Shown: positions 24,291 to 63,534 of the stretch, in pieces | How positions within the stretch are numbered: the first letter of the stretch is position 1 | Layout: each line of letters begins with the position of its first letter | Assembly (NCBI RefSeq): GCF_964275005.1 | Contig: NC_092685.1 | Span: forward strand, 35,612,018 to 35,676,017 | Source: Diadema setosum | Taxonomy: Eukaryota; Echinodermata; Echinoidea; Diadematoida; Diadematidae | Length of the DNA stretch: 64,000 nt | Direction: 5' to 3' | Position numbers and translations under genes: made by a program | Notes under the pieces: generated by a model | Told to the model about the DNA's origin: nothing | Seen by the model: the letters and a program-made list of their open reading frames with translations, nothing else | The model's database searches: none

Positions 24291-24344
<54 letters not shown>

Positions 24345-28054: not shown

Positions 28055-29190
28055 TGTAGCGGTTTCCAATATCTCTGTATTTTTACTGTCTGGCTGCTGT
28101 CAATTATGCTGTCTGACAACCCAGCATTCTGTCAATATCCACGAGAGCTTTCTTTGTGCGCCGGCACACGACAGGTGCGCACTACATTCTTCGCTTTTGT
28201 CATCGTGCCGAGGTACGCGTATTTCACATTCCAACAGTAGTCGCATTTTCATAAACACACCTCTTGTTTTGCTGTCACGGAAACAAGCTACCAATTAGTG
28301 GCGAGCTGCGCATCTCCATCAGCCAATTACCACTCTCAAAGCTCCTGTCCGTGACATGTTTTCTCCGACCACGCTGTTTCATTTTCCACGCTTCCTCACT
28401 TCACGATTAGCTTTCATCCCGAGAGCGCGTCCTAATCGTTGGAGTCACTCACGTCCGCATACTACGTCCGTATGTACTTCACACGTCTTCTCGCGCTGAC
28501 GATACCTCGCGCCGTGGACTGGCACTTCATACGGATTATACAATACGGATTATTACACTTTCCCGGATTTCGTACTTCGCGGCATTCGCTACTTTTCATC
28601 GCGACTCGCCCTTTCTTCAGGCTACACTCCAACCTGGGGATCTTAACATCGCTACATTCAACGCGACCGGCGCCTCGTTACATCGCTGCATTCAACGCGA
28701 TCTGAACGCGATCGGCGCCTCGTTACATCGTTGCATTCAACGCGATCTGCGTCCCATCACATCGCTAGCTGCTTCTGTCCTGCTAGCGCGTGGTCTGTGG
28801 TGTGCAGACTCTACCACAACCAGCTAGGGACCGTGCAGTTCTTCTATCCAGCGCTCCAGCTGTGGATCGACTCTACCCTCGCTTGTGCTAGCCGCGGCAC
28901 TCGGAGGATACTCCACGCTGCTGCTGGATATTTTGTACATACTTCTATGGGACACTGTCGTCTTCGGACACCCTTAGTGCATTCGGAGTTAGTCCATATT
29001 ATTTCGGGAAGTGCAATACAACCTACAAGGACACTTTACACCTTTTCTGGTGCCCTAGTGCATTCCACTACTGATACGGTCGCCTACCATTCCTGCTGGT
29101 GGTGCCTTCAGCTTCAAGTCCCGTTAGCCACTCGGTGAGTAATAATTTAGTTAGGTATTTCATTATAGGCCCGCACCACAAATATCTACA
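28055..29190 (+). repeat. 5' LTR
   Basis: TG...CA-type ends, 1136 bp. Contains an internal tandem motif (tacatcgctgcattcaacgc and variants, about 28650-28750). Confidence 0.92.
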
Positions 29191-29191
29191 T

Positions 29192-29209
29192 TGGTGACCC
29201 CGACGTGAT
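29192..29209 (+). promoter_or_regulatory. Primer-binding site
   Basis: TGGTGACCCCGACGTGAT begins one base after the 5' LTR, as expected for a tRNA primer site. The TGGTGACCCC start fits a tRNA 3' CCA complement. Which tRNA is used is not determined. Confidence 0.75.
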
Positions 29210-29277
29210 TGTTTAGGGCCAACTTCACGTCCCATCCTACATCTTTCACCGTTCATCCTCCTTCCTTCACTCCTACA

Positions 29278-30444
29278 ATGGCCGACGCCGACGAGGGTAA
29301 CGCCACCCCGGCTGCCACGACTCCCACGCCAGCGGTCACGGCGGTTAGCCTCAAGCTCCCCCCCTTCTGGCCCAACGACCCCGCCCTCTGGTTTGCGCAG
29401 GTAGAGGCGCAGTTTACTACCAGGAGCATTACTACTCAGCAGACGCGCTTCGCTTATGTAATCTCCTCCCTGCAACCGGAGATTGCGCAGGAAGTGAGGG
29501 AATTCATCATCTCCCCTCCAACCACCGACGCTTATGACAAGGTGAAGGCCGAGCTCATAAAGAGGACCACCGTATCGGAGCAGCGGCGGCTCCATCAGCT
29601 GCTCACGGCAGAGGAGTTGGGCGACCGCAAACCTTCACAACTCCTACGCCGCATGAAACAGCTGCTCGGCGACGCGACCTTAGAAGACAGCATCCTTAAG
29701 CAGCTGTTCCTACAACGCCTGCCACGTAACGTTCAGCAGATTTTGGCCTCCACGTCCACGGAAGTCACTATCGAGCAGGTTGCTGAACTAGCGGACAAGA
29801 TCATCGAGGTTGCCACGCCACTATCGGTCGCCACAGTGGCAGCGCCGCCGTCCATCCCCCAGTCTCTCCCCATCCCGTCGGCTACTCTCCCACCGACGTC
29901 TCCCAGTCCTCCGGCGGCAGATCCCGTAGCGCACCTCACAGCACAGGTCGCCATGCTGACGACGCAGGTGTACGCGATAGCCTCTCGTCTCGACGAGCGT
30001 GGGCGCCAGCGGTCCCGAGGCGGCAACCGCGGCCATGGAGGCGGGCCGCGCAGCTCGCCGCGGAAGCGAACTCCTTCCGAAATCCGACACGCTGGCAGCG
30101 AGTGCTACTTCCATTGGAAGTTTGGCGACGACGCCCGGCAGTGCTGCTCACCCTGCTCGAGGCGAAAAACCTCAGCCACTTCCAACGCACCAGGGAAACA
30201 GCCCAGCCAGACTTCAGCGGCAACGAGCCCCTCTGGCAGCGACACAACTGGTCGCCGATCTCCCACTTCGGATCGACAACACCGGGCTGTCGACTACGGC
30301 ACACTTTCCTCGACCGTCACCACTGCCGAAGTCAGCGCCCTCCCTCCTTCACCCCCCAACAAGACGAAGCCTCCGCCTGCACTGCACTTACAGGCGGTGA
30401 AGCCCCCCCGTCACCACTCTCGGAGAGCGCTCGTTCACACCTGA
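29278..30444 (+). CDS. gag: Gag-like polyprotein of the LTR element
   Basis: The frame opens at ATG 29278 (MADADEG) and runs about 388 codons to TGA at 30442-30444. Residues about 25-180 form a retrotransposon gag/capsid-like domain with LPPFWPNDPALWFAQVEAQF at its start, followed by a Pro/Ala-rich linker. A basic RGGNRGHGGG region and a Cys/His segment CYFHWKFGDDARQCCSPC (about residues 275-292) stand where a nucleic-acid-binding knuckle is expected. The C-terminal part holds a weak TAEVSALPP remnant of an aspartic protease, with the usual DTG not intact. This start was chosen because the 23 codons upstream lack an ATG. Confidence 0.8.
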   Translation: MADADEGNATPAATTPTPAVTAVSLKLPPFWPNDPALWFAQVEAQFTTRSITTQQTRFAYVISSLQPEIAQEVREFIISPPTTDAYDKVKAELIKRTTVSEQRRLHQLLTAEELGDRKPSQLLRRMKQLLGDATLEDSILKQLFLQRLPRNVQQILASTSTEVTIEQVAELADKIIEVATPLSVATVAAPPSIPQSLPIPSATLPPTSPSPPAADPVAHLTAQVAMLTTQVYAIASRLDERGRQRSRGGNRGHGGGPRSSPRKRTPSEIRHAGSECYFHWKFGDDARQCCSPCSRRKTSATSNAPGKQPSQTSAATSPSGSDTTGRRSPTSDRQHRAVDYGTLSSTVTTAEVSALPPSPPNKTKPPPALHLQAVKPPRHHSRRALVHT

Positions 30445-30847
30445 CTTTGGCCCGCGTCGCAATCTTCGACGCAAACGCAAGCGGAACACCACATCCCACG
30501 CTCCCGCTCGTCCACACAATTCCACGCGTGATCCCAAGCATCTCACTCTGGAGATCAACGCCAAAAGGGAGACAGCCACGACGAGCATTCCGCTCACCAC
30601 ACCGCGGCAGCAACCTACGCCTGTCCCCGCCAGGAGCACGGCGAGCAACCCGAGCGTCCCTCTCACCATACCGCGGCAGCAGCCTACACAACCGCAGCAG
30701 ACGACACTGCAGCAGCCTACACAACCGCAGCAGACGACACTGCGGCAGTCAACACCACTCCAGCAGCCAACACGAACGACACGCACTGGCGGTAAGCACG
30801 TACACTGGCCAGCCCATTACGTTCAATACAGATATTTCGACACGTGA
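30422..30847 (+). pseudogene. Protease/pol C-terminal remnant in shifted frame
   Basis: The frame one base ahead of gag is open from 30422 to TGA 30845-30847. It carries a short protease-like start (GERSFTPDFG), then a Pro/Gln/Thr-rich stretch with a tandem QPTQPQQTTL repeat, and ends GGKHVHWPAHYVQ. That tail resembles the extreme C-terminus of Ty3/gypsy pol. The shift relative to gag lies at or just before the C7 run at 30404-30410. Everything between the protease and the pol tail is absent, so this is a deletion derivative. Confidence 0.6.
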
Positions 30848-30934
30848 AATTCTCAACCCCTACTTCCTTCACATTTCTCACAATCGATCGCTTATCTTTA
30901 GTCTGCACTTCATTGACTCCTACACTAGCGATCT

Positions 30935-30948
30935 GGAAGGGGGCTAAA
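30935..30948 (+). promoter_or_regulatory. Polypurine tract
   Basis: GGAAGGGGGCTAAA lies directly upstream of the 3' LTR, the expected plus-strand priming site. Confidence 0.75.
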
Positions 30949-32084
30949 TGTAGCGGTTTCCAATATCTCTGTATTTTTACTGTCTGGCTGCTGTCAATTA
31001 TGCTGTCTGACAACCCAGCATTCTGTCAATATCCACGCGAGCTTTCTTTGTGCGCCGGCACACGACAGGTGCGCACTACATTCTTCGCTTTTGTCATCGT
31101 GCCGAGGTACGCGTATTTCACATTCCAACAGTAGTCGCATTTTCATAAACACACCTCTTGTTTTGCTGTCACGGAAACAAGCTACCAATTAGTGGCGAGC
31201 TGCGCATCTCCATCAGCCAATTACCACTCTCAAAGCTCCTGTCCGTGACATGTTTTCTCCGACCACGCTGTTTCATTTTCCACGCTTCCTCACTTCACGA
31301 TTAGCTTTCATCCCGAGAGCGCGTCCTAATCGTTGGAGTCACTCACGTCCGCATACTACGTCCGTATGTACTTCACACGTCTTCTCGCGCTGACGATACC
31401 TCGCGCCGTGGACTGGCACTTCATACGGATTATACAATACGGATTATTACACTTTCCCGGATTTCGTACTTCGCGGCATTCGCTACTTTTCATCGCGACT
31501 CGCCCTTTCTTCAGGCTACACTCCAACCTGGGGATCTTAACATCGCTACATTCAACGCGACCGGCGCCTCGTTACATCGCTGCATTCAACGCGATCTGAA
31601 CGCGATCGGCGCCTCGTTACATCGTTGCATTCAACGCGATCTGCGTCCCATCACATCGCTAGCTGCTTCTGTCCTGCTAGCGCGTGGTCTGTGGTGTGCA
31701 GACTCTACCACAACCAGCTAGGGACCGTGCAGTTCTTCTATCCAGCGCTCCAGCTGTGGATCGACTCTACCCTCGCTTGTGCTAGCCGCGGCACTCGGAG
31801 GATACTCCACGCTGCTGCTGGATATTTTGTACATACTTCTATGGGACACTGTCGTCTTCGGACACCCTTAGTGCATTCGGAGTTAGTCCATATTATTTCG
31901 GGAAGTGCAATACAACCTACAAGGACACTTTACACCTTTTCTGGTGCCCTAGTGCATTCCACTACTGATACGGTCGCCTACCATTCCTGCTGGTGGTGCC
32001 TTCAGCTTCAAGTCCCGTTAGCCACTCGGTGAGTAATAATTTAGTTAGGTATTTCATTATAGGCCCGCACCACAAATATCTACA
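30949..32084 (+). repeat. 3' LTR
   Basis: Same length and termini as the 5' LTR and apparently about 99.9 percent identical by eye. Followed by the target duplication CAGT. Confidence 0.92.
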
Positions 32085-32088
32085 CAGT

Positions 32089-33503
32089 GATCAATTCGAC
32101 AATCAATTGATTAACATGATTGGTCTCAAGTTAAGAATAAGATTGTACAGTTGGCGTTGTACTTTTTACTGGTAAGTTGTCGAAATAGATTAAACTTTAG
32201 ACGGTTCTACTTTCTATGACTTAGAAATTGCTAGGTCTGTAGACTCTCGTGTTCTAACGGTTAGACCTATTATTCTAGCATAGACATGATCAATACAATG
32301 CATGATGTAGCCCGACCAGACGCTGTTACGCTATGCGAAAACAGCGTCTGACGAGCGCAGCATGCAGCCTTAAAGTGAGGAACCTCAACACAACTAGCAC
32401 TACAAAACTTAGGAAAATGTATACTTTTCTCCTTTAAACAGAATACTTTACTCACGTTAAATGCATGTTTCTATTACAGAAGAATAGTTCGCCACACTGG
32501 GTCCATGGAGACCACTTGCGATAAGTCCGTGGAACAAATAAATGACACTTTCTGGCGCAATTCCTGACCGTCGGTACGTCGCGACGTACCATGTACAGCG
32601 CCTGGCTGTGTATAGTTAGGCCTGGCGTAAAAGATTGTGTACCGTGTGGACATGCTGGATATGATGATCAATTTCGGTAAGTTTCATTGCTTACATTTGA
32701 ATACAGATAGCATCAGATGTAGAGTAAATATTGAAAAGTATACTCGTTGAGTTTGAGGTGACAAAAATGATGTTAAGTATCAAAATTCAAACCAAAGCTA
32801 TCGTAATACGATTACGTCGCTCTCCTAGTGGTTGGTGGTCGCGCGCGTACAGCCCTGTCGCGACGTACCATGTACAGCGACTGGGCTGTGTATAGACTAG
32901 TTATGCATGATGATGCAGTCTGTGTCTAGCTAACGTTAGAACGTAACGTTAGATTCTAGCTGCCCATTGAACAGTACACAGTAAGTGATGCCCTTTCACT
33001 TAGCCCACTTGTCTACGCGAGAGAGGGTAAGGCAGCTGTGAATGCCGCAGAAGGTCTACGTCTAATGTTAGGCCTAGTCGGCCTATAAATATTTGTTTGG
33101 TTCCTCCCTCCCCCCCCCCCCCCCCACCGTATCTGTTTACACAGCATGAAATTCTACGGGTTGGACTAGGCTATAGTAGGCACCTACACTAGTACAGGCA
33201 CTGAGCACAAACGCTGCTATTTTACTGCTCACTAATAAGAATACCGCATATGAATACAAAAGCTAAAATCGTACCGAGCCGCCCGTCATTAATCGGCAAA
33301 GATAACCTCCAAGACAGTCAATGATGAATTATTCAATACACCTTGGCGAGCTCGAGTAGAACGCTGGATCATGTATACACACTACGCGCTACGGACCGGC
33401 GGGCGTACGAAAATTAGCTAGAAAGTAGCATACATGAAAGAGTGTTTGGTACATTTCTGAAGACTATTGCCAATTTGAAGAGGACACAGCAATGAGGGTG
33501 CTG
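32089..33503. other. Intergenic DNA, no gene recognised
   Basis: No ORF or known repeat can be supported. A poly(C) run occurs at about 33110-33125. The motif gcgacgtaccatgtacagcg occurs twice (about 32580 and 32861), hinting at an unrecognised repeat. Confidence 0.4.
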
Positions 33504-33783
33504 TTCGTTATTCCGAAGGTTCGATATTCCGAAGGTTCGTTATTCCGAAGGTTCGTTAATCCGAAACACGCAAATTCCTTATACCTAAGTTGGTTAGACT
33601 AAGAGGTTCGTTAATCCGAAAATGAAAAAGGGTTCGTTAATTCGAACATTTGTGGCGTTATTCCGAAAGTTCGTTATTCCGAAGATTTGTTCATCCGAAA
33701 ATGAAATTCGGAAAAACGAACCTTCGGAATAAGGAATCTTCGGACTGAAGAGCCTTCGGAATAACGAACCTTCGGAATAACGA
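33504..33783. mobile_element. Palindromic foldback of TTCGTTATTCCGAAGG units
   Basis: The left half repeats TTCGTTATTCCGAAGG-like units. The right half carries the reverse complement CCTTCGGAATAACGA, and the ends are inverted repeats. GCTG occurs on both sides (33500-33503 and 33784-33787), a possible 4-bp duplication. The unit is itself partly palindromic. Non-coding. Confidence 0.6.
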
Positions 33784-34034
33784 GCTGTAACCCAGCAATG
33801 ATAATGGTTCATGCTGTGCAGTGCGGGGCGGGGGTTCGATGCGCACCGTGATACTACCGTGCTTGCAGGTTGCACACAATCAAACAGTCAATAATATTCT
33901 GTGAAAGTGGAAGTATTGTTAGCGGTGCTGAAATTTTGTCGCACGTTTCGCGCAACCACAAACTAGCGCGAAAAAAAAAAAGCACGCGAATATTTTTGCT
34001 TGCCATTATGTTCCAACAGTTGATGTCTTGATTG

Positions 34035-34072
34035 CAACCACAGAACTCTTACAAGAGTTCTGTGATTGCAAC
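34035..34072. repeat. Short perfect hairpin
   Basis: cacagaactct-tac-aagagttctgtg has 11-bp arms and is bracketed by attgcaac-like direct repeats. Confidence 0.6.
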
Positions 34073-34417
34073 ACGCGAAACTCCTCTTACCCCGCCGAGC
34101 ACGAGTGCGAAAAATGTTTAGTCGCGAGAAAATATCCACTACAGTTGTTGATGCGATGGAGGACATCTGGATCTGGATCTGGATCTGGATGTGTACAATG
34201 CAGCCCGACTGGGCATAACCAAGATGTGAGTTCCAACTGGCTGTAATTATTCAAACAGTTGTCGCTTTTCTCATGTACAAAAGAATTCCAAATGTGCATC
34301 TGTGCCTTGATGACGGGGTTGATGCCGCTGTCTTGCTGAGCTACTGAAGTTGGCTAATATATTTTGCTTGTTTATCTACTATATGAAACGAAATCTCTCT
34401 TAATGATAAAGTACATT

Positions 34418-34714
34418 CAGGGGCCGCGGAAGCGGGGGGGGGGGGGGGGCTGGGGGGCTGCAGTCCCCCCCCCCCCCCCCCCCACACGCACACACACTTT
34501 TGGTTCGTCAGAAAAAAAAAAATCGAAAAAAAAAATCGAAAAAAAAATCACAACACTCATGAATTTCAATTCCCAAAGATTCCGCCCTTAGATTCTTCCC
34601 GACTAAAAAAAGCGGGGGGGGGGGGGGGGGGGGTCTTGACCTTGCCACCCCCCTCCCCCCGGTCCCGCAGCCCCACCCCCCCCCCCCACACTGAAAAACG
34701 TTCCGCGGCCCCTG
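34418..34714. mobile_element. Non-autonomous TIR element with G/C runs
   Basis: Starts CAGGGGCCGCGGAA and ends with its exact complement TTCCGCGGCCCCTG. Flanking ACATT (34413-34417 and 34715-34719) is a likely 5-bp target duplication. The interior holds four long G or C homopolymers. CAGGGGC ends resemble hAT elements, but an 8-bp duplication is not seen. Confidence 0.7.
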
Positions 34715-35181
34715 ACATTGAACAAAGGTCAATCCCTCCCAGATGTGCAAAAGTGTAAATCAGAGCTGCATGTATGATGTGAAGTGTTTAAAACTGTACC
34801 CTCCTTGAAAGCCGGTTTTATCACTTTTTCACTGTATAATTCCGACAAATAAAACTGATATGAAACAATCTTCAAGTATAATTCTTTGTTAACATATATA
34901 TCAGATTAGTGCCCGGGCATGTCCAGTCGAGTAATTTTCATTTTCATTTAATCATTTTTTGTGCAATTTCTATATCACCTAGCTATCTTTTAAAGTAGGG
35001 ATGGCGAAAAATATACCATCACAAAGACATAATCATCTTCCTTAGAAAATGGCTGATGATTATGCAATGGAGACATGAGTTAAATTAGGCCCTAATGTCT
35101 TCCTATATCTGCGCGGCAGAATTCGCAGTTTGCAATCCACAATGCTTTAAATAAGTTTCGAGTGGCGGCATCGAACCTGGC

Positions 35182-35641
35182 TTAAGGGTGCGTTCACATA
35201 GAAGTATACTATTCGGGTATTCGGGCTCGTTTTTCGAGGGCACGCGAATAGCTTGAATCGAACGATAGGATTTCCTCACACCGGTTCACATAGGAGGGCA
35301 CTATTCGAAAGTACCGAGTAGCTGCGAAAAGTATAGCAAAGTGGAAATCGAACTTGTTCGATTTTCTTGCAGCGTATACCGTCTCTCGTTTATGAAATAA
35401 TGACAATTTTGGTCTGGATTTGCCCTATAAGTTAGCAAAAATAAGCATGTAGACTGACATTCTGATGCAGTTTGGAAATTGTTAATAAGATTTGCTAGGA
35501 TGTAGGAGGAGGAAATCCTCACTGCATGGGATGGTGAGTTGACGGTGCGGGTGATGGTGTATTCGGGGCCCGAATAGCGAATACCGAATAGCGAATAGCG
35601 AATACCGAATACCGAATACTTCTATGTGAACGCAGCCTTAA
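35182..35641. mobile_element. TTAA-flanked MITE with GAATA-type repeats
   Basis: TTAA-GGGTGCGTTCACATAGAAGTAT at the left and the near-exact complement ATACTTCTATGTGAACGCAGCC-TTAA at the right. The right interior has a tandem cgaatagcgaataccgaata array. The TTAA target is piggyBac-like; no transposase. Confidence 0.8.
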
Positions 35642-36053
35642 CAAAGGAAATACCTGGTACAACAGTTACAGTCATGACTCCATTCTCTTGAACCTCCTTG
35701 GTACAATGGGAAAGACAGTGCTCGCATTTGAATTGAACGCACATGATCCAATGCGTGAAACTTGATTTGACGGAAACGAAACGAAGCCGAAGGTGGGAAA
35801 CAGAGTTCCCATAAATTAGATTGATCTGTGAATTGGATTCTGAATTTGAATGCCCGAATTAAGTTCGCGTGCGTGGGCTGTGTGAATTTGAATGCACATT
35901 CATAAATTGGGATGACAAAAGTTTGAAATTGACAGAGAAAACCTATACTGAATTATTTGAAGATACATAATGTATCGCCCTCCCAAATAAAAGGAGCTTC
36001 GATATTCAATTATCTGGTGCACACTTCGGGGTGAAATATCTGGAGAATTTCAG

Positions 36054-36057
<4 letters not shown>

Positions 36058-36124
<67 letters not shown>

Positions 36125-36144
36125 TATATATATATATATATAAA
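36058..36144. repeat. Poly(A) and (TA)n tract
   Basis: A run of As is followed by about 65 bp of TA repeats, interrupted by tatatgtata. It borders the Penelope-derived complex. Confidence 0.9.
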
Positions 36145-36331
36145 GACGATGAAGACAAACAAGTTGACATAATGCATTAGAATCCAACTTCATTTATTTG
36201 TAAACCAAATTTTCGACCCTTGCACGGATCTTCCTCAGGGTAACAGATCCGTGCAAGGGTCGAAAATTTGGTTTACAAATAAATGAAGTTGGATTCTAAT
36301 GCATTATGTCAACTTGTTTGTCTTCATCGTC
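36145..36331. repeat. Perfect 86-bp-arm hairpin, Penelope-type termini
   Basis: 36145-36230 and 36246-36331 are exact reverse complements around a 15-nt loop. Read on the minus strand, the loop and right flank give CTGAGGAAGATCC...GGGTCGAAA followed by ATTTG/CAAAT arms, a hammerhead-like layout often seen at Penelope-element ends. It looks like two truncated termini of a second Penelope-like family joined head to head. Confidence 0.75.
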
Positions 36332-36359
36332 TTCATGCTCTTATTCCAACACGCGGATA

Positions 36360-36367
36360 ATAATACC

Positions 36368-36415
<48 letters not shown>

Positions 36416-36610
36416 GAAAGAGTCTCAAGTACGCCATGGATCCAACGATGACAAAAAATTTTTATTACAAAATTTTCCATGGCATACTTGAGACTCTTTC
36501 TTCTAATAATTACAACATTCGAAGTCCAACACATGGAAAATTCCTATATATATATATATATATAATGGTATTATCTAGAAAATATAATACTTGTTTGTCT
36601 TCATCGTCTT

Positions 36611-36649
<39 letters not shown>

Positions 36650-36690
36650 TGGAATTTTCCACGTGTTGGACTTCGAATGTTGTAATTATT
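36360..36690. repeat. (TA)n tracts with fragments of Penelope 3' end
   Basis: Three TA arrays (about 36371-36410, 36546-36563, 36612-36648) separate pieces of the same 3' end seen at the palindrome edge. A 28-bp-arm hairpin (36412-36439 with 36477-36504, one mismatch) is built from the agaagaaagagtctcaagta end sequence. The element's 3' tail reads about aagtccaacacgtggaaaattcc followed by (TA)n, which suggests targeting of TA repeats. Confidence 0.65.
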
Positions 36691-36737
36691 AGAAGAAAGA
36701 GTCTCAAGTACGCCATGGATCCAACGATTACAAAAAA

Positions 36738-36785
36738 ATTTTATTACAAAATTTTCGGTCTGCCTCAGACCTTCGTCAGTGCAAA
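36738..36785 (-). ncRNA. Hammerhead-like motif, minus copy
   Basis: Exact mirror of the motif at 44211-44258: minus-strand CTGACGA, stem II with AGG loop, then GAAA. The same caveats apply (extra A, U-rich cleavage region). Confidence 0.5.
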
Positions 36786-37709
36786 GACAATGATGGACAA
36801 TGATAAACATGAATCATAACAACAATGCTATGCGCGTCATGCGCGTAGTGCGTTGCCCTGGAGCTGCGTTGTCAAGGAGAGCGCTGATACGTATAGGGGT
36901 ATGGTAGAAAGTGAAATCTCAATGAATACTGAACTCAGACTCAACAAAAGTTTCAAGTGCTTGTTTGAATCATAATATGCTATATATACTCTTTATAAAA
37001 ATACATTGCTTTATATACGTCCTTGTAATAATAGACTTTAGCGATTCTATTTTTTTCGTAGATAAACTTCGAAGAAAAGACGCATATAAAGCACTGATTA
37101 CAAATGGAGAAGAAATTAAAAGGAATGAGCTAATAATACAACTAGTTATTAGAGCGTCTGTTTACTGTAAAAATAAAAATTGTATATATATATATATATA
37201 TATTATACGGATGATCAAGACATCATATCAAAAAAATAGTGTTCAATACAAATATAATAAAATCTCAACATTAACTCAATAAAAATCTCAATGAAGACTA
37301 AACTCAAACTCAACAGTTCCGAGCGTATGTGTATATTATATGCATGCCAATGTATGCTATATATACTATATATAAATACATTACTTTATGTATACATCCA
37401 TGTAATATTTGACTTTTGTGACTCCAAAAAAGCATGTAAAGACGCCTATCAAGCATCAATCAAGCATCAATTACAAATGGAGAAAAACATGAAAAAATAA
37501 GCTCATAATAATCATAACCAAATATCGAAGCATCTCTTTACTGTAATGGTGAGAATATGATAAATTTGCGGATAATCAAGACATCATATTTAACATAAAA
37601 GGTAAGTGGTCAATGCGAAAGTAATAAAATCTTAACATTACCTTTTGTAAATAATGAAAAATATGCATATAATATAGGTCTAGTCTCAGATTCTTAGAGA
37701 TTCGTTTCT

Positions 37710-40202
37710 TCACATCTTGTAGAAAGAGAAACTGCTTAACCATCCAAGGTCCTTGTTGAGTCCCGTTTCAAAAGACCTGGTTTGGATGATGAATTTCATT
37801 TCAGCTAATTTTCTGGCTTCTCTGTCTTTGAAATTAGTGCCGATGATACAGAATTGCAGATCCCGAATTGAGTGGTTGCCCGAGTTGAAATGTTCGGCAA
37901 CTGGTAGTGATGACTTGTGCTGAATTGAACTTCTGTGATTGTTGAAACGAAGTCTGAACTTAGTACCTGTTTCCCCGATATACTTCGCGTTAGGGCATTT
38001 TGAGCATGAGATGCAGTAAACCACATTTGGGGTGTCACATGTGGCGTGAGGGGTAGAGACAGAGAAGCCAGGAGTTAGATCTACTTTTTCAGAGGTGAGC
38101 ATATGGGCACAGATTTGGCAACGGCTTTTGCCACATGGGCGGTTAGCTTTCTGTTTTTGTTTCTTTGAGATTGAGCTCTTTACCAATAATTCTCGTAGGT
38201 TTTTCGGTTGTTTTTGAGCGTTGATGGGGTGGTTCGAGAACGTGGCAGGGAGAGATTTGTCAAGAGATAGGTATTTCCACTCCTTGTTGATTTCGTTAAT
38301 CAACGCTTTTGTGGAGGGATGATACGTGGTTACAAGAGGTAGCCTGTCAGATGGTTTAGCAGTTTCGCTTTTACTCTTGAGTAACTCTTCACGCTTTTTT
38401 GATTTAGCTCTTTCTAGACTGCGGTTTATCATGTGGATAGGATATCCTCTTTGTAAGAAGAAGCCTCCTAGTGTGATCGCTTGTTTGTCAAATTCCTCGT
38501 CATCTGAGATGATTCTCCGGTATCTCAGAAACTGACTGTACACGACCGCTTCTTTGCAGTGTTTTGGATGGAAGCTTTCATGGCGAAGATAGGTGTGTTT
38601 GTCAGTGGGCTTGTGATACACACTTGTCGAAATCTTGTTTCCGTCAGATATTTTGAGTTTAACATCAAGGAAGGCAATCTCTGACTTTGACTTTGACATA
38701 GTGAATTGGATGCTTCGGTTGGCTTTTCCGAAGTCTTCGACAAACTTCATGAGCGACTCGTCTGAGTCTGTCCAAATTATGAAAATATCGTCGATGTATC
38801 TCAGATAGAGTAGAGGCTTCTTCTCACATTTGGATAGGAAACTTTGTTCTAGCTCACACATGAATATGTTTGCATACGAAGGGGCCATTTTCGTGCCCAT
38901 TGCAGTGCCATTGGTTTGGAGATAGAATTTGTCGTCAAACGTGAAGAAATTGTGCTTGAGAATGAACTCTGTTAACCTAGCAAGATCAGTTACAAGAGAT
39001 GCTTCTACGTCTTGCTTAGTAAGAAAATCTGACATGGCCTTGATTCCGTCTTTATGACCTATGTTAGTGTACAGAGAAGTGACATCCATCGTGACTAGAG
39101 TAAATGACTCGGGGAGTTTATCCTTTATGGACTCTATCTTGTTGAGAAAGTCAGTGGTGTCTTTGATGAAGCTGGGAATCGAGGGCAAGTATTTTTGTAG
39201 AGTTCTATCTACGTAAGCTGACATCATTTCTGTTAGAGAACCACAGTTTGATATTATGGGTCGGCCTGGTGGGATGATGTTATGTGATTTAGCTACGTCG
39301 ATTACCTGGTCACTGGAGATCTCGCCTTCTGGTTGTTCGAGGTGTGAGGCTACTTTCGCTTGTAGTTTGTGGATCTTCGGTAGAAGGTAGAGACGACTGG
39401 TTCTGGGATCGGTGGGGAGAAGGTTCCTGCTTTCAGTTTTCGGGATCGCCGATAGTGATGACAGGACTTCCTCTGCCTCTTTAGTGAATTGCTGAGAGGG
39501 ATCCGACGACAGGGGTGTGTAGAATCTTCCATCAGAGAGTTGCCGTTGTGCTTCCGCGATGTAGTTGTCTTTATCTTGAACAGTAACTGCTCCCCCTTTA
39601 TCTGCTGGTTTGATAACTATGTCGTCGTTGTTTTGGAGGGATTTGATGGCTCGTCGCTCACTTGCGCTCAAGTTGTCGGCTGTACATTTTTCGTCAATAG
39701 AGCGAAGGAATGTGTCAAGGTGCTGATTAACACTGTTGATGAAGGTGTCGATATACTGGTTTCGATTGCCAGGCGGTGTCCACTCTCTGCCTCCTTTGCG
39801 TTGGGATTTAGGATTAGCAGGCACTGCGTTCTCCGCTTTATGTGCATCATGTGAACTATCCCCATTGAAGTACTCACGGAGTCTCACCCGACGTTCCAAG
39901 TTCCGGACATGTTGACAGAGTTGGAGTTTATCAAGTTTCGTTGTGGGGCAGAAGGACAAACCGCGGTTTAGAATTTTCTCTTCAGCATCAGTGAGTGAAT
40001 AATGGGATAGATTCACCACCACGTTATGAGCTTCTGGCGTACTCTCCTCCGTTGAGTCTGCGGGCTTTTGCCTTCTGGTGTTGAGGATGGGTGAAGTGGA
40101 AATCAAATGATCGAGCTTTTGATTTTTCACTTTCATTCTATCACTCAATGTCTGCTTGTATCTTTTGTCCAGATACTTGAATGTCGATTCCACGCTTTCC
40201 TA
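37710..40202 (-). pseudogene. Penelope RT/GIY-YIG ORF, minus copy with premature TAG
   Basis: The open frame after the stop runs 827 codons and appears identical to the plus copy by eye. In-frame TAG at 40202-40200 replaces the CAG of the plus copy at 40798-40800, one base change. Upstream, the same frame stays open through about 40604. Domains downstream of the stop are complete: the N-terminal PLE region with KPADKGGAV, the RT palm with YIDD, a Cys/His linker and the C-terminal GIY-YIG nuclease. The product would need readthrough or internal initiation to be whole, so the copy is probably defective. Confidence 0.85.
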
Positions 40203-40388
40203 GGTGTAGTTCCGTTGTCTTAGTGTTTCCCGCAGTGCATGTATGGCCGCATCGATATCTGTAGTAAGCTTCTTTTGCTTGGCGTAGGCGCTTCGAAGAG
40301 CGTCGTTTCTCAACAGTTCAGAAGCCCGGCGGCATATTTGGCGAGATTGTCGTGAGTTAGAAGTCGATCCGAGAGGGTTTTTAACAGT

Positions 40389-40540
40389 AAATCCTTTGGG
40401 TAAGAGGTCCAGTTTTCTGCAACGCGACAGGAAATATATGTCCGATCTTGTTTGCGCAAATAATCCTTTGGGTAAGAGGTCCAGTTTTCTGCAACGCGAC
40501 AGGAAATATATGTCCGATCTTGTTTGCGCAAGTTTATCAT
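40389..40540. repeat. Palindrome centre with asymmetric 72-bp tandem duplication
   Basis: A unit beginning atcctttgggtaagaggtcc occurs at 40391 and again at 40463 on the left side, but only once, inverted, on the right (from 40541). The inner arms gtttgcgcaa (40522-40531) and ttgcgcaaac (40541-40550) flank a 9-nt spacer, gtttatcat. This is the head-to-head 5' junction of the two Penelope copies. Confidence 0.85.
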
Positions 40541-43290
40541 TTGCGCAAACAAGATCGGACATATATTTCCTGTCGCGTTGCAGAAAACTGGACCTCTTAC
40601 CCAAAGGATTTACTGTTAAAAACCCTCTCGGATCGACTTCTAACTCACGACAATCTCGCCAAATATGCCGCCGGGCTTCTGAACTGTTGAGAAACGACGC
40701 TCTTCGAAGCGCCTACGCCAAGCAAAAGAAGCTTACTACAGATATCGATGCGGCCATACATGCACTGCGGGAAACACTAAGACAACGGAACTACACCCAG
40801 GAAAGCGTGGAATCGACATTCAAGTATCTGGACAAAAGATACAAGCAGACATTGAGTGATAGAATGAAAGTGAAAAATCAAAAGCTCGATCATTTGATTT
40901 CCACTTCACCCATCCTCAACACCAGAAGGCAAAAGCCCGCAGACTCAACGGAGGAGAGTACGCCAGAAGCTCATAACGTGGTGGTGAATCTATCCCATTA
41001 TTCACTCACTGATGCTGAAGAGAAAATTCTAAACCGCGGTTTGTCCTTCTGCCCCACAACGAAACTTGATAAACTCCAACTCTGTCAACATGTCCGGAAC
41101 TTGGAACGTCGGGTGAGACTCCGTGAGTACTTCAATGGGGATAGTTCACATGATGCACATAAAGCGGAGAACGCAGTGCCTGCTAATCCTAAATCCCAAC
41201 GCAAAGGAGGCAGAGAGTGGACACCGCCTGGCAATCGAAACCAGTATATCGACACCTTCATCAACAGTGTTAATCAGCACCTTGACACATTCCTTCGCTC
41301 TATTGACGAAAAATGTACAGCCGACAACTTGAGCGCAAGTGAGCGACGAGCCATCAAATCCCTCCAAAACAACGACGACATAGTTATCAAACCAGCAGAT
41401 AAAGGGGGAGCAGTTACTGTTCAAGATAAAGACAACTACATCGCGGAAGCACAACGGCAACTCTCTGATGGAAGATTCTACACACCCCTGTCGTCGGATC
41501 CCTCTCAGCAATTCACTAAAGAGGCAGAGGAAGTCCTGTCATCACTATCGGCGATCCCGAAAACTGAAAGCAGGAACCTTCTCCCCACCGATCCCAGAAC
41601 CAGTCGTCTCTACCTTCTACCGAAGATCCACAAACTACAAGCGAAAGTAGCCTCACACCTCGAACAACCAGAAGGCGAGATCTCCAGTGACCAGGTAATC
41701 GACGTAGCTAAATCACATAACATCATCCCACCAGGCCGACCCATAATATCAAACTGTGGTTCTCTAACAGAAATGATGTCAGCTTACGTAGATAGAACTC
41801 TACAAAAATACTTGCCCTCGATTCCCAGCTTCATCAAAGACACCACTGACTTTCTCAACAAGATAGAGTCCATAAAGGATAAACTCCCCGAGTCATTTAC
41901 TCTAGTCACGATGGATGTCACTTCTCTGTACACTAACATAGGTCATAAAGACGGAATCAAGGCCATGTCAGATTTTCTTACTAAGCAAGACGTAGAAGCA
42001 TCTCTTGTAACTGATCTTGCTAGGTTAACAGAGTTCATTCTCAAGCACAATTTCTTCACGTTTGACGACAAATTCTATCTCCAAACCAATGGCACTGCAA
42101 TGGGCACGAAAATGGCCCCTTCGTATGCAAACATATTCATGTGTGAGCTAGAACAAAGTTTCCTATCCAAATGTGAGAAGAAGCCTCTACTCTATCTGAG
42201 ATACATCGACGATATTTTCATAATTTGGACAGACTCAGACGAGTCGCTCATGAAGTTTGTCGAAGACTTCGGAAAAGCCAACCGAAGCATCCAATTCACT
42301 ATGTCAAAGTCAAAGTCAGAGATTGCCTTCCTTGATGTTAAACTCAAAATATCTGACGGAAACAAGATTTCGACAAGTGTGTATCACAAGCCCACTGACA
42401 AACACACCTATCTTCGCCATGAAAGCTTCCATCCAAAACACTGCAAAGAAGCGGTCGTGTACAGTCAGTTTCTGAGATACCGGAGAATCATCTCAGATGA
42501 CGAGGAATTTGACAAACAAGCGATCACACTAGGAGGCTTCTTCTTACAAAGAGGATATCCTATCCACATGATAAACCGCAGTCTAGAAAGAGCTAAATCA
42601 AAAAAGCGTGAAGAGTTACTCAAGAGTAAAAGCGAAACTGCTAAACCATCTGACAGGCTACCTCTTGTAACCACGTATCATCCCTCCACAAAAGCGTTGA
42701 TTAACGAAATCAACAAGGAGTGGAAATACCTATCTCTTGACAAATCTCTCCCTGCCACGTTCTCGAACCACCCCATCAACGCTCAAAAACAACCGAAAAA
42801 CCTACGAGAATTATTGGTAAAGAGCTCAATCTCAAAGAAACAAAAACAGAAAGCTAACCGCCCATGTGGCAAAAGCCGTTGCCAAATCTGTGCCCATATG
42901 CTCACCTCTGAAAAAGTAGATCTAACTCCTGGCTTCTCTGTCTCTACCCCTCACGCCACATGTGACACCCCAAATGTGGTTTACTGCATCTCATGCTCAA
43001 AATGCCCTAACGCGAAGTATATCGGGGAAACAGGTACTAAGTTCAGACTTCGTTTCAACAATCACAGAAGTTCAATTCAGCACAAGTCATCACTACCAGT
43101 TGCCGAACATTTCAACTCGGGCAACCACTCAATTCGGGATCTGCAATTCTGTATCATCGGCACTAATTTCAAAGACAGAGAAGCCAGAAAATTAGCTGAA
43201 ATGAAATTCATCATCCAAACCAGGTCTTTTGAAACGGGACTCAACAAGGACCTTGGATGGTTAAGCAGTTTCTCTTTCTACAAGATGTGA
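40396..43290 (+). CDS. Penelope-like reverse transcriptase with GIY-YIG endonuclease
   Basis: A 964-codon frame. The first 49 or so codons read antisense through the left arm and the spacer, so the ATG at 40396 is probably fortuitous. Element-derived protein begins near 40541 and has no ATG before 40864. Domains: N-terminal PLE region with KPADKGGAVTVQ, RT fingers with RPIISNCGS, then TMDVTSLYTNI, TNGTAMGTKMAPSYAN and catalytic YIDD (about residues 603-606), a CGKSRCQICAH Cys/His linker (about 824) and a GIY-YIG nuclease with VVYCISC (about 861) and YIGETG (about 875). In PLEs the nuclease nicks the target and the RT copies the RNA in place. All visible motifs are intact, so activity is possible apart from the missing native start. 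Confidence 0.92.
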   Translation: MGKRSSFLQRDRKYMSDLVCANNPLGKRSSFLQRDRKYMSDLVCASLSFAQTRSDIYFLSRCRKLDLLPKGFTVKNPLGSTSNSRQSRQICRRASELLRNDALRSAYAKQKKLTTDIDAAIHALRETLRQRNYTQESVESTFKYLDKRYKQTLSDRMKVKNQKLDHLISTSPILNTRRQKPADSTEESTPEAHNVVVNLSHYSLTDAEEKILNRGLSFCPTTKLDKLQLCQHVRNLERRVRLREYFNGDSSHDAHKAENAVPANPKSQRKGGREWTPPGNRNQYIDTFINSVNQHLDTFLRSIDEKCTADNLSASERRAIKSLQNNDDIVIKPADKGGAVTVQDKDNYIAEAQRQLSDGRFYTPLSSDPSQQFTKEAEEVLSSLSAIPKTESRNLLPTDPRTSRLYLLPKIHKLQAKVASHLEQPEGEISSDQVIDVAKSHNIIPPGRPIISNCGSLTEMMSAYVDRTLQKYLPSIPSFIKDTTDFLNKIESIKDKLPESFTLVTMDVTSLYTNIGHKDGIKAMSDFLTKQDVEASLVTDLARLTEFILKHNFFTFDDKFYLQTNGTAMGTKMAPSYANIFMCELEQSFLSKCEKKPLLYLRYIDDIFIIWTDSDESLMKFVEDFGKANRSIQFTMSKSKSEIAFLDVKLKISDGNKISTSVYHKPTDKHTYLRHESFHPKHCKEAVVYSQFLRYRRIISDDEEFDKQAITLGGFFLQRGYPIHMINRSLERAKSKKREELLKSKSETAKPSDRLPLVTTYHPSTKALINEINKEWKYLSLDKSLPATFSNHPINAQKQPKNLRELLVKSSISKKQKQKANRPCGKSRCQICAHMLTSEKVDLTPGFSVSTPHATCDTPNVVYCISCSKCPNAKYIGETGTKFRLRFNNHRSSIQHKSSLPVAEHFNSGNHSIRDLQFCIIGTNFKDREARKLAEMKFIIQTRSFETGLNKDLGWLSSFSFYKM

Positions 43291-44210
43291 AGAAACGAAT
43301 CTCTAAGAATCTGAGACTAGACCTATATTATATGCATATTTTTCATTATTTACAAAAGGTAATGTTAAGATTTTATTACTTTCGCATTGACCACTTACCT
43401 TTTATGTTAAATATGATGTCTTGATTATCCGCAAATTTATCATATTCTCACCATTACAGTAAAGAGATGCTTCGATATTTGGTTATGATTATTATGAGCT
43501 TATTTTTTCATGTTTTTCTCCATTTGTAATTGATGCTTGATTGATGCTTGATAGGCGTCTTTACATGCTTTTTTGGAGTCACAAAAGTCAAATATTACAT
43601 GGATGTATACATAAAGTAATGTATTTATATATAGTATATATAGCATACATTGGCATGCATATAATATACACATACGCTCGGAACTGTTGAGTTTGAGTTT
43701 AGTCTTCATTGAGATTTTTATTGAGTTAATGTTGAGATTTTATTATATTTGTATTGAACACTATTTTTTTGATATGATGTCTTGATCATCCGTATAATAT
43801 ATATATATATATACAATTTTTATTTTTACAGTAAACAGACGCTCTAATAACTAGTTGTATTATTAGCTCATTCCTTTTAATTTCTTCTCCATTTGTAATC
43901 AGTGCTTTATATGCGTCTTTTCTTCGAAGTTTATCTACGAAAAAAATAGAATCGCTAAAGTCTATTAGTACAAGGACGTATATAAAGCAATGTATTTTTA
44001 TAAAGAGTATATATAGCATATTATGATTCAAACAAGCACTTGAAACTTTTGTTGAGTCTGAGTTCAGTATTCATTGAGATTTCACTTTCTACCATACCCC
44101 TATACGTATCAGCGCTCTCCTTGACAACGCAGCTCCAGGGCAACGCACTACGCGCATGACGCGCATAGCATTGTTGTTATGATTCATGTTTATCATTGTC
44201 CATCATTGTC
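43291..44210 (+). other. Penelope 3' UTR with diverged tandem blocks
   Basis: Mirror of 36786-37709. Two related blocks of about 370 bp share ctcaatga...actcaacag, a tatatac/acattNctttat core, ttacaaatggagaa, and gatNatcaagacatcatat endings. A short (TA)n lies within. The small frames here have no recognisable domain. Confidence 0.6.
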
Positions 44211-44258
44211 TTTGCACTGACGAAGGTCTGAGGCAGACCGAAAATTTTGTAATAAAAT
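44211..44258 (+). ncRNA. Hammerhead-like motif near Penelope 3' end
   Basis: CTGACGA (44217-44223) is followed by stem II GGTCTG-AGG-CAGACC (44225-44239), GAAA (44240-44243), an AATTTT/AAAATT stem III and tgtaa. The tgtaa can pair with ttgca upstream as a short stem I. The core matches the hammerhead layout except for an extra A before stem II and a U-rich, slipped cleavage site, so activity is doubtful. Hammerhead-type motifs are known from Penelope-like elements. The mirror copy is at 36738-36785 on the minus strand. Confidence 0.5.
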
Positions 44259-44303
44259 TTTTTTGTAATCGTTGGATCCATGGCGTACTTGAGACTCTTT
44301 CTT

Positions 44304-44305
<2 letters not shown>

Positions 44306-44358
<53 letters not shown>
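44306..44358. repeat. (TA)n microsatellite
   Basis: About 50 bp of pure TA directly abutting the 3' end of the right Penelope copy. Confidence 0.92.
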
Positions 44359-44362
<4 letters not shown>

Positions 44363-44439
44363 ACTTTTATTTATTTAAGCTGCGTTGCAGGAAAACAAAA
44401 TATTCGATTCTTTCATTGGTACGTGATTTAAAAAGAAAT

Positions 44440-45585
44440 GGGGGGGGGAGGGTCAATTCTGTTCAAACCAAATAGGTTCTATATGTCATAGAACCTCTTT
44501 GGTTCAAACCCCCTATCTGCGTTGAGAGGTCCGTGATATACTAGTAAATGCTTACAGTACGTGCACATGATAAACAGCACATCATCGCTGTGTTCCCCTT
44601 CAAATTGGCAATAGGCGTACGCCACATTCAGAAATGCCGTCTAATATCCAACTGACTCAGCCGGGCCGTTCATCACTTGCGCCCACCACTTGCACCCAGC
44701 CGCCACCCGGCCACTGCCCCCGGCCGGCCCGCCTCCGTATTGTACACCGCACCGGCCTGCCTTCGCCCAACACTTACGTGTGCCGAGGTGAATGATTGAA
44801 CTTGGTCTGCTCTCTTTTCATGCTCTGCTGAGCCTTGTTGAGGCAAAGTGCGTGTACAGAGGTGGTACCAGTCGACCAACGTCCATGAAACGACTGCGAA
44901 CATGAACTGGCATAAACTACCAAAGCCCCGTTAACCAGCTGGTCTGTAAATGGACTAATGCCAATGGTGTGTATCCTTGACCTTGCCTTGCACATTTGCC
45001 ATCCATCGCATCACAGTTCATGCCAGATGTACGATGTCATGTCCAATACTATAGTCTGTGTACATGAGCTTTGCTGCCTCTTCTGACTTCTCCAGCGCCA
45101 GTCCACTGGAAATGAATGGAAGGTTATCATTATGGTTATGAAGGCTGCCTATTGTGAAGGCATTTATTGTGAATGTCATCACGGTTTATTCTTACATTCA
45201 TTACCTATCTATTTATGTTAGAAGATCGAGTCAGTTTGTGTACTTTGATTACTAGATTCTGACAGTGAGTGACAGTGTTGTTGTATTCTTGTAATGTAAG
45301 GTACACCTGCAAGAAAATCATCATGCTATATAGGTCTAATTAGTTAAAAGTAAAACTCTGGACTGGTAACTTTAGTCTAAGTAAACTTATATCAACACTA
45401 AGCGGTTCTGCATTTAACGTTAGACATTTGCTGTTGACAGGTTGGTGACAGTCTACAGGCTTAAAACAGCATGGTCAGATGGCCTGGCAATATTATGGCT
45501 CTTCTACTGCCCTAGTCGAACTACTGACACGGTTCTCGTCTGCAAATTTCTACTAGTAGTAGCAGGTCACTTCAACAGCTTCAAC
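44440..45585 (+). promoter_or_regulatory. PEX6 upstream region
   Basis: No coding region is secure. The patch at 44680-44790 is GC-rich (ccggccggcccgcctcc) and may be the promoter core. On the minus strand at about 44770-44995 an open frame of 73 codons overlaps a consensus donor (CACAC then GTAAGT), which could be a divergent non-coding exon. gttgacag ending at about 45441 could be a 5' UTR acceptor. Confidence 0.3.

Positions 45586-63534
<17,949 letters not shown>

What the first reader, a model, noticed from the sequence alone, without database searches (positions are those of the whole stretch)
36691..44305. 7.6-kb near-perfect palindrome of two head-to-head Penelope-like elements
Each arm is a full-length-looking PLE (RT plus GIY-YIG). 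Mirror coordinates sum to 81000 across the whole ORF, so the arms have no indels there. PLEs are known for tandem and inverted copies, but a head-to-head pair with almost no divergence suggests one event, such as template switching during reverse transcription or breakage-fusion, and not two insertions. The transcript of either strand would be a giant hairpin and a potential dsRNA/piRNA trigger. An inverted-duplication sequencing or assembly artefact is the main rival; the unequal arms argue against a simple one.
Basis: partly seen in the sequence, partly recalled or inferred. Interest (0 to 1): 0.8.

Follow-up and report, generated by a model that had tools for sequence, protein, structure and literature searches.

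The report
Palindromic Penelope retrotransposon pair
Two nearly identical copies of a Penelope-like jumping gene sit head-to-head inside a TA repeat beside three tiny inserts of the same design, which suggests that this poorly understood element is copied into DNA from both cut ends at once.

Summary
The palindrome is real in this sequence: arms 36691-40531 (-) and 40541-44305 (+) differ by 2 substitutions, a 4-nt TA length change and a 72-bp tandem copy in the left arm. Each arm carries RT and GIY-YIG but lacks the 5' pseudo-LTR, native start and ORF N-terminus; the left ORF has an in-frame stop. The start codon lies at the outer 3' end, as in known Penelope-like elements (PLEs). The outer ends differ: the left has a 43-nt 'tail', the right none, like the two RT start sites published for an anole PLE (PMC11167929). 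The TA repeat to the left holds three more head-to-head PLE inserts. All four have outward 3' ends in (TA)n, one end tailed and one not; in one, the arms share no sequence. That argues against fold-back, self-priming, breakage-fusion and inverted-read artefacts, and favours reverse transcription primed from both cut strands. Head-to-head PLE palindromes are known (PMC3846280); the new part is evidence on how they form. The host genome could not be searched, so assembly error remains open.

The parts
36691..40531 (-). Left arm of insert D: N-terminally truncated PLE (RT + GIY-YIG + 3' pseudo-LTR), outer end at 36691, with the 72-bp duplication at the inner end
40541..44305 (+). Right arm of insert D: same element; outer end TTTCTTCT without tail, then (TA)n. 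Agreement with the left arm's first copy starts at 40539
36648..36690 (-). 43-nt tail present only on the left arm (continues the ORF start to codon 23)
40390..40531 (-). 72-bp tandem duplication at the inner (5') end of the left arm
40532..40540 (.). 9-nt central spacer GTTTATCAT
40537..43290 (+). Right-arm ORF without its N-terminus: RVT_1 (E 2.7e-16), Cys-rich motif, GIY-YIG (E 6.2e-05 on the C-terminal 147 aa)
37710..40199 (-). Left-arm ORF, open part; an in-frame stop lies just upstream
44210..44271 (+). Hammerhead-like motif CTGACGA..CGAAA; minimum-energy fold is a three-way junction (23 of 200 shuffles fold as well); not an Rfam hit
36725..36786 (-). The same hammerhead-like motif in the left arm
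44280..44305 (+). ORF start (ATG) inside the 3' pseudo-LTR; the no-tail end lies 26 nt into it
36143..36369 (.). Insert A (family 2): head-to-head; left end without tail, right end with 35-nt tail (36335-36369)
36411..36544 (.). Insert B (family 1, as D): head-to-head; left end without tail, right end with 40-nt tail (36505-36544)
36565..36612 (.). Insert C (family 2): left = last 10 nt of the tail (-), 14-nt filler, right = 23 nt ending at the no-tail site (+); the arms do not overlap
36073..36142 (.). (TA)n target tract, left of insert A (short interruption at 36117-36122)
36370..36410 (.). (TA)n tract between A and B
36545..36564 (.). (TA)n tract between B and C
36613..36647 (.). (TA)n tract between C and D
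44306..44358 (.). (TA)n tract right of D

Best explanation
A GIY-YIG-encoding Penelope-like element inserted at a (TA)n microsatellite. The enzyme, probably a dimer, cut both strands and primed reverse transcription from both 3' ends: one cDNA started at the inner 'no-tail' site, the other about 40 nt further into the ORF start, at the 'tail' site. Both minus-sense cDNAs ran through the pseudo-LTR and the ORF, and their far ends were joined, giving two copies head to head with 3' ends outward. SHOWN from sequence: palindrome, outward 3' ends at (TA)n on both sides, tail on one side only, and the same plan in three smaller inserts of two families in the same TA tract. INFERRED: that these ends are RT start sites (by analogy with the anole PLE), two-strand priming, dimer, one event. 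UNDECIDED: how the inner ends were joined. The two cDNAs stop within about 9 nt of each other after ~3.8 kb, which points to a shared template stop, or to snap-back of one cDNA that then annealed to the other. The confidence given covers two-ended priming with either kind of join, so it includes the first rival below.
For: Protein and layout: RVT_1 and GIY-YIG domains; ORF start inside the 3' pseudo-LTR, hammerhead-like motif beside it. Ends: 8 of 8 outer ends of the 4 inserts lie at (TA)n, one of them after a single extra T; 4 of 4 inserts have one end with and one without a tail; the ends fall within about 4 nt of two sites per family, the exact base being blurred where element and TA repeat agree. 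Insert C has non-overlapping arms (10 nt and 23 nt), so neither was copied from the other. The flanks are not mirrored. Literature: the purified anole PLE cuts and extends both strands, prefers AT-rich DNA, starts RT at two adjacent internal sites that bracket the tail, and is a predicted dimer (PMC11167929). The tails of D and A, from two families, share TCCAACACGYGGA, 12 of 13 letters; 3 of 5000 pairs of letter-shuffled tails do as well. Insert B has an A at one of these letters (11 of 13 against A).
Against: The nearly coincident inner ends of D (9-nt spacer) and A (13-nt spacer) are what fold-back would give; pure two-ended priming does not predict them without a shared stop. A 1:1 tail rule in 4 of 4 inserts would arise by chance 1 time in 16 if each end had a tail with probability one half. 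Insert C could be a deletion remnant of a longer insert. No target-site duplication can be read in a TA repeat. RNA folding of the tails gives no stem-loop better than shuffles (z 0.25 and 1.14; 120 and 179 of 200 shuffles fold as well), and the hammerhead-like motif is only weakly better (z -1.37, 23 of 200). There are no reads, no second haplotype and no other genomic copies: the genome search did not complete.
Confidence: 0.68

Rival explanations
1. Hybrid (a version of the best explanation, its odds included there): both strands primed, but one cDNA was short. The long cDNA snapped back at its 5' end, copied itself for ~3.8 kb, and the new strand annealed to the short tail-bearing cDNA on the other side.
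For: Accounts for the nearly equal inner ends, the tight 9-nt loop with a 70-bp stem and the unequal outer ends.
Against: Needs one more step; does not apply to insert C, which has no overlap.
Confidence: 0.2
2. Self-priming of an antisense PLE transcript or of one cDNA (fold-back), as favoured for Adineta vaga palindromes in PMC3846280.
For: Gives head-to-head order, equal inner ends and near identity.
Against: Predicts mirror-image outer ends; 4 of 4 inserts here are asymmetric at the tail, and insert C has no shared sequence.
Confidence: 0.06
3. Assembly or library artefact (inverted-read chimera or misjoin of two PLE loci).
For: Long palindromes are prone to artefacts; no reads were available; the host genome search did not complete.
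Against: Fold-back reads give mirrored flanks, not seen. The two sides have RT-start-like junctions of different type, the arms differ in three ways, and three small inserts with the same plan lie alongside.
Confidence: 0.1
4. Two independent insertions in opposite orientation.
For: PLEs favour AT-rich targets, so the same tract can be hit twice.
Against: No TA or recognisable host DNA between the arms, only 9 nt; 2 substitutions in ~3.77 kb.
Confidence: 0.04
5. Breakage-fusion or replication-based inverted duplication of one PLE.
For: Makes perfect inverted repeats.
Against: Would also duplicate flanking DNA; mirror similarity stops at the element ends and the outer ends differ.
Confidence: 0.02

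Closest known systems
Poseidon from Anolis carolinensis (PAc), PMC11167929
   Same: RT plus C-terminal GIY-YIG; ORF start in the pseudo-LTR; hammerhead motif near the start; optional tail between two RT start sites; AT-rich targets; in vitro, both strands are cut and extended.
   Different: PAc is described in tandem arrays, and the parts I read (1 and 2 of 4) do not derive head-to-head pairs. Here the two ends fall ~26 and ~69 nt after the ATG; in PAc the commonest RT start is at 111-118. PAc's ribozyme cut site lies 26 bp after its start codon; here the motif lies before the ATG.
Penelope families of Adineta vaga, PMC3846280
   Same: Inverted pseudo-LTRs, head-to-head as the most frequent inverted arrangement, palindromes at the inverted junction, optional tail on one of the inverted pseudo-LTRs, simple AT-rich targets.
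   Different: In the case described most fully there (Pen2a) the inverted part is a short pseudo-LTR; long tandem/inverted structures are mentioned for Pen3 and Pen4. Self-priming is the favoured reading there. Here both arms are ~3.8 kb with RT and GIY-YIG, and the ends argue for two primings.
LINE-1 twin priming (recalled, not looked up)
   Same: Two priming events on the two target strands give an inverted junction inside one insert.
   Different: L1 twin priming gives a 5' inversion from one RNA, with one outer 3' end; here both outer ends look like 3' ends made at internal RT start sites.

Membership tests
Penelope-like element, EN-containing (Penelope/Poseidon type) | Reverse transcriptase domain | tested here: met
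   RVT_1 E 2.7e-16 right arm, 2.4e-16 left arm
Penelope-like element, EN-containing (Penelope/Poseidon type) | C-terminal GIY-YIG endonuclease | tested here: met
   PF01541 E 6.2e-05, 23.7 bits over cutoff 22.6 on the C-terminal 147 aa, and 3.5e-05 on 93 aa. Not found on the whole protein, on a 217-aa stretch or in PHROGs
Penelope-like element, EN-containing (Penelope/Poseidon type) | RT groups with PLE/TERT in a phylogeny | not tested
   No PLE or TERT reference set was aligned; the only solved chains matched are named retron-type reverse transcriptases, E 0.007-0.008
Penelope-like element, EN-containing (Penelope/Poseidon type) | Pseudo-LTR that includes the ORF start, with optional tail | tested here: met
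   ATG 26 nt before the no-tail end; 43-nt tail on one side. A 5' pseudo-LTR is absent in both arms, so the repeat itself is not seen within one arm
Penelope-like element, EN-containing (Penelope/Poseidon type) | AT-rich target | tested here: met
   8 of 8 outer ends lie at (TA)n
PLE hammerhead ribozyme | CUGANGA core, stem II, GAAA, in a three-way junction | tested here: inconclusive
   Motif at 3 places in the window; MFE fold of the one tested is a three-way junction, but 23 of 200 shuffles fold as well; no Rfam hammerhead match
Self-primed (fold-back) palindrome | Mirror-image outer ends | tested here: not met
   Tail on one side only in 4 of 4 inserts

The most novel reading that the evidence does not exclude
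PLE integration is a concerted two-ended reaction: a dimer primes one cDNA at the no-tail site and the other at the tail site in every event, so the head-to-head pair is the primary product and the inverted pseudo-LTRs seen in other animals are the same product with one arm cut short. In addition, each ~3.8-kb arm runs from the start of the ORF once around the element and stops just inside the ORF again, which would fit a unit-length (perhaps circular) RNA template with a stop at the enzyme-binding region. How far inside the ORF it stops could not be measured, as no full-length copy was available.
Probability: 0.35. Interest if true: 0.75.

Novelty: new member of a known kind. Interest (0 to 1): 0.5.

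Why it matters
How Penelope-like elements make their inverted and tandem structures is unsettled. The 2013 paper reads the palindromes as self-priming; the 2024 biochemistry shows both strands cut and extended but, in the parts I read, does not link this to inverted copies. One TA tract with four head-to-head inserts, all asymmetric at the tail and one with non-overlapping arms, separates these readings and gives a simple genome-wide test: score the tail at both outer ends of every inverted PLE pair.

Tried and rejected
Rfam search for a hammerhead: none (for 30000-50000 at E up to 1; for two short stretches at E up to 10); hits to microRNA families at the centre only reflect the palindrome and lie below gathering scores. 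Structure prediction from a single sequence: mean pLDDT 31.7 and 35.9, unusable, so no fold search was run. Relatives of the protein in viral contigs and genome contigs: 15 and 51 pattern matches, none confirmed (records of the host itself may be left out there); two exact DNA patterns in viral contigs: none. RNA folding of the two tails: no better than shuffles. Other PLE RT copies in the window: none beyond the two arms; the only other tblastn matches at E up to 1 were two 22-aa ones at the palindrome centre (E 0.022 and 0.036). Breakage-fusion, independent insertions and fold-back were ranked low for the reasons given. That the missing N-terminal part is short is my recall of PLE N-termini and was not tested.
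Full report
WHAT IS THERE. The mirror scan and repeat finder confirm a near-perfect palindrome. Each arm is about 3.77 kb, without counting the extra 72-bp unit. Between the arms there are 2 substitutions, one 4-nt TA length difference and one 72-bp tandem copy present only at the inner end of the left arm. The centre is a 9-nt spacer between 70-bp perfect arms. Beyond the element ends the mirror similarity is lost (left side down to 35500); the one non-TA inverted match outside (I3) is insert B, a further copy of the same element end.

THE ELEMENT. Right of the centre the frame is open for 917 aa, to the stop at 43290. It contains a reverse transcriptase (RVT_1, E 2.7e-16), a Cys-rich motif (its typicality for PLEs is recalled) and a GIY-YIG domain (E 6.2e-05 on the C-terminal 147 aa and 3.5e-05 on 93 aa; not detected on the whole protein, on a 217-aa stretch, or in PHROGs). 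Upstream the frame runs on into the antisense of the other arm (stop to stop 1000 aa), so any ATG there is not the element's own start. The left-arm frame is interrupted by an in-frame stop. The element's start codon lies at the outer 3' end instead: ATG at 44280 and at 36716 (-), just past a hammerhead-like motif. That motif folds as a three-way junction, although 23 of 200 shuffles fold as well and no Rfam hammerhead model reports it. This is the pseudo-LTR layout of PLEs: the ORF start comes again after the ORF. The arms lack the 5' pseudo-LTR and the ORF N-terminus and are not full length.

THE OUTER ENDS. Both ends are identical up to TTTCTTCT, 26 nt after the start of the ATG. The right arm then meets (TA)n. 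The left arm continues for 43 nt and then meets (TA)n. In the anole PLE, RT starts at two adjacent internal sites and the stretch between them is the long-known optional tail; the enzyme cuts AT-rich DNA and extends both strands (PMC11167929, parts 1 and 2 of 4 read). The two ends of this palindrome look like one start at each site.

THREE MORE INSERTS. The TA tract left of the palindrome holds three short inserts separated by (TA)n. A (36143-36369) is a second PLE family: 92-nt arms, left end without tail, right end with a 35-nt tail. B (36411-36544) is the same family as the large pair: left end without tail, right end with a 40-nt tail; where its arms overlap each other and D there are a few differences. 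C (36565-36612) is family 2: the last 10 nt of the tail inverted, 14 nt of filler, then 23 nt ending at the no-tail site. Counting the large pair as D, 8 of 8 outer ends lie at (TA)n (one after a single extra T) and 4 of 4 inserts have exactly one tail. The 10-nt piece of C occurs once per strand in the window: in C and, inverted, at the tail end of A. The only other TA tract of 16 nt or more outside the cluster and the arms (24295-24328) has none of the four end motifs searched beside it. The tails of D and A share TCCAACACGYGGA (12 of 13 letters; 3 of 5000 pairs of letter-shuffled tails reach this); B has one further change there. The motif lies about 7-12 nt before the tail end and may correspond to the AC-rich site of the anole element; folding gave no support for a stem-loop (z 0.25 and 1.14).

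MECHANISM. Fold-back of one cDNA, or self-priming of an antisense RNA as favoured in PMC3846280 (Discussion read, 10 passages), makes the second arm a copy of the first, so the outer ends should mirror each other. They do not in 4 of 4 cases, and in C the arms share no sequence. Breakage-fusion should mirror the flanks, and they are not mirrored. Priming from both cut strands, each at its own RT start site, predicts what is seen. What it does not predict by itself is that the inner ends coincide closely: a 9-nt spacer in D and a 13-nt spacer in A. This needs a shared template stop, or a snap-back and annealing step added to two-ended priming. The 72-bp repeat at the left inner end could be RT re-copying at a stop, part of such a snap-back, or a later change at the palindrome centre. 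If each end had a tail with probability one half, 4 of 4 one-each would occur 1 time in 16, so a strict one-each rule is only a suggestion here. C could be a deletion remnant.

ARTEFACT. A simple inverted-read chimera does not fit, because the two flanks carry their own, different RT-start-like junctions. A misjoin of two PLE loci is not excluded.

AGE. Two substitutions in about 3.77 kb mean a recent event or arms kept alike by gene conversion; these cannot be separated here.

WHAT IS KNOWN. Papers were sought (20 of 462 listed; 20 of 28; 25 of 39; 20 of 94; 10 of 10; 1 of 1; 10 of 18; 7 of 7). PMC3846280 reports head-to-head as the most frequently observed inverted arrangement, a tail on one of the inverted pseudo-LTRs, and long tandem/inverted structures in Pen3 and Pen4. 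PMC8969392 (5 passages) mentions inverted pLTRs and short 3' extensions. In PMC12910113 the 12 of 19 passages shown do not bear on this. In these listings and passages I saw no paper that derives the inverted pairs from two-strand priming; Craig et al. 2021 was not held, and the older Penelope literature was not read. The locus is therefore a member of a known kind, with long arms that keep RT and GIY-YIG, and with evidence that bears on the mechanism.

SETTING. The right end of the palindrome lies about 1.3 kb upstream of the first ATG (~45.59 kb) of a 589-aa open frame that matches no Pfam family; AAA-ATPase stretches follow at 52-62 kb (3 of 4 stretches tested match Pfam AAA). I take this for one gene, PEX6-like by recall, so the host is probably an animal; the species is unknown.

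Noticed in passing
28055-32084: Direct 1136-bp repeats 99.9% identical (28055-29190 and 30949-32084) around an ORF that looks gag-like by eye (29209-30444; no domain search was made): a young, apparently non-autonomous LTR retrotransposon.
   Followed up: partly
43357-43717 and 43724-44082 (and mirrored in the left arm): The 3' region of each PLE arm holds two diverged (67%) tandem copies of a ~360-bp unit.
   Followed up: no
49548-49645: Short array of CCTAAT/CCTAAC-type units, telomere-like, between the 589-aa ORF and the AAA stretches.
   Followed up: no
60042-61199: Tandem array of a 158-bp unit, 7.4 copies, 97% matches, between two AAA stretches.
   Followed up: no
45424-62059: Probable gene with AAA-ATPase stretches, PEX6-like by recall.
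   Followed up: partly
40461-40611: The palindrome centre matches microRNA precursor families in Rfam below gathering cut-off, only because it is a perfect hairpin.
   Followed up: yes
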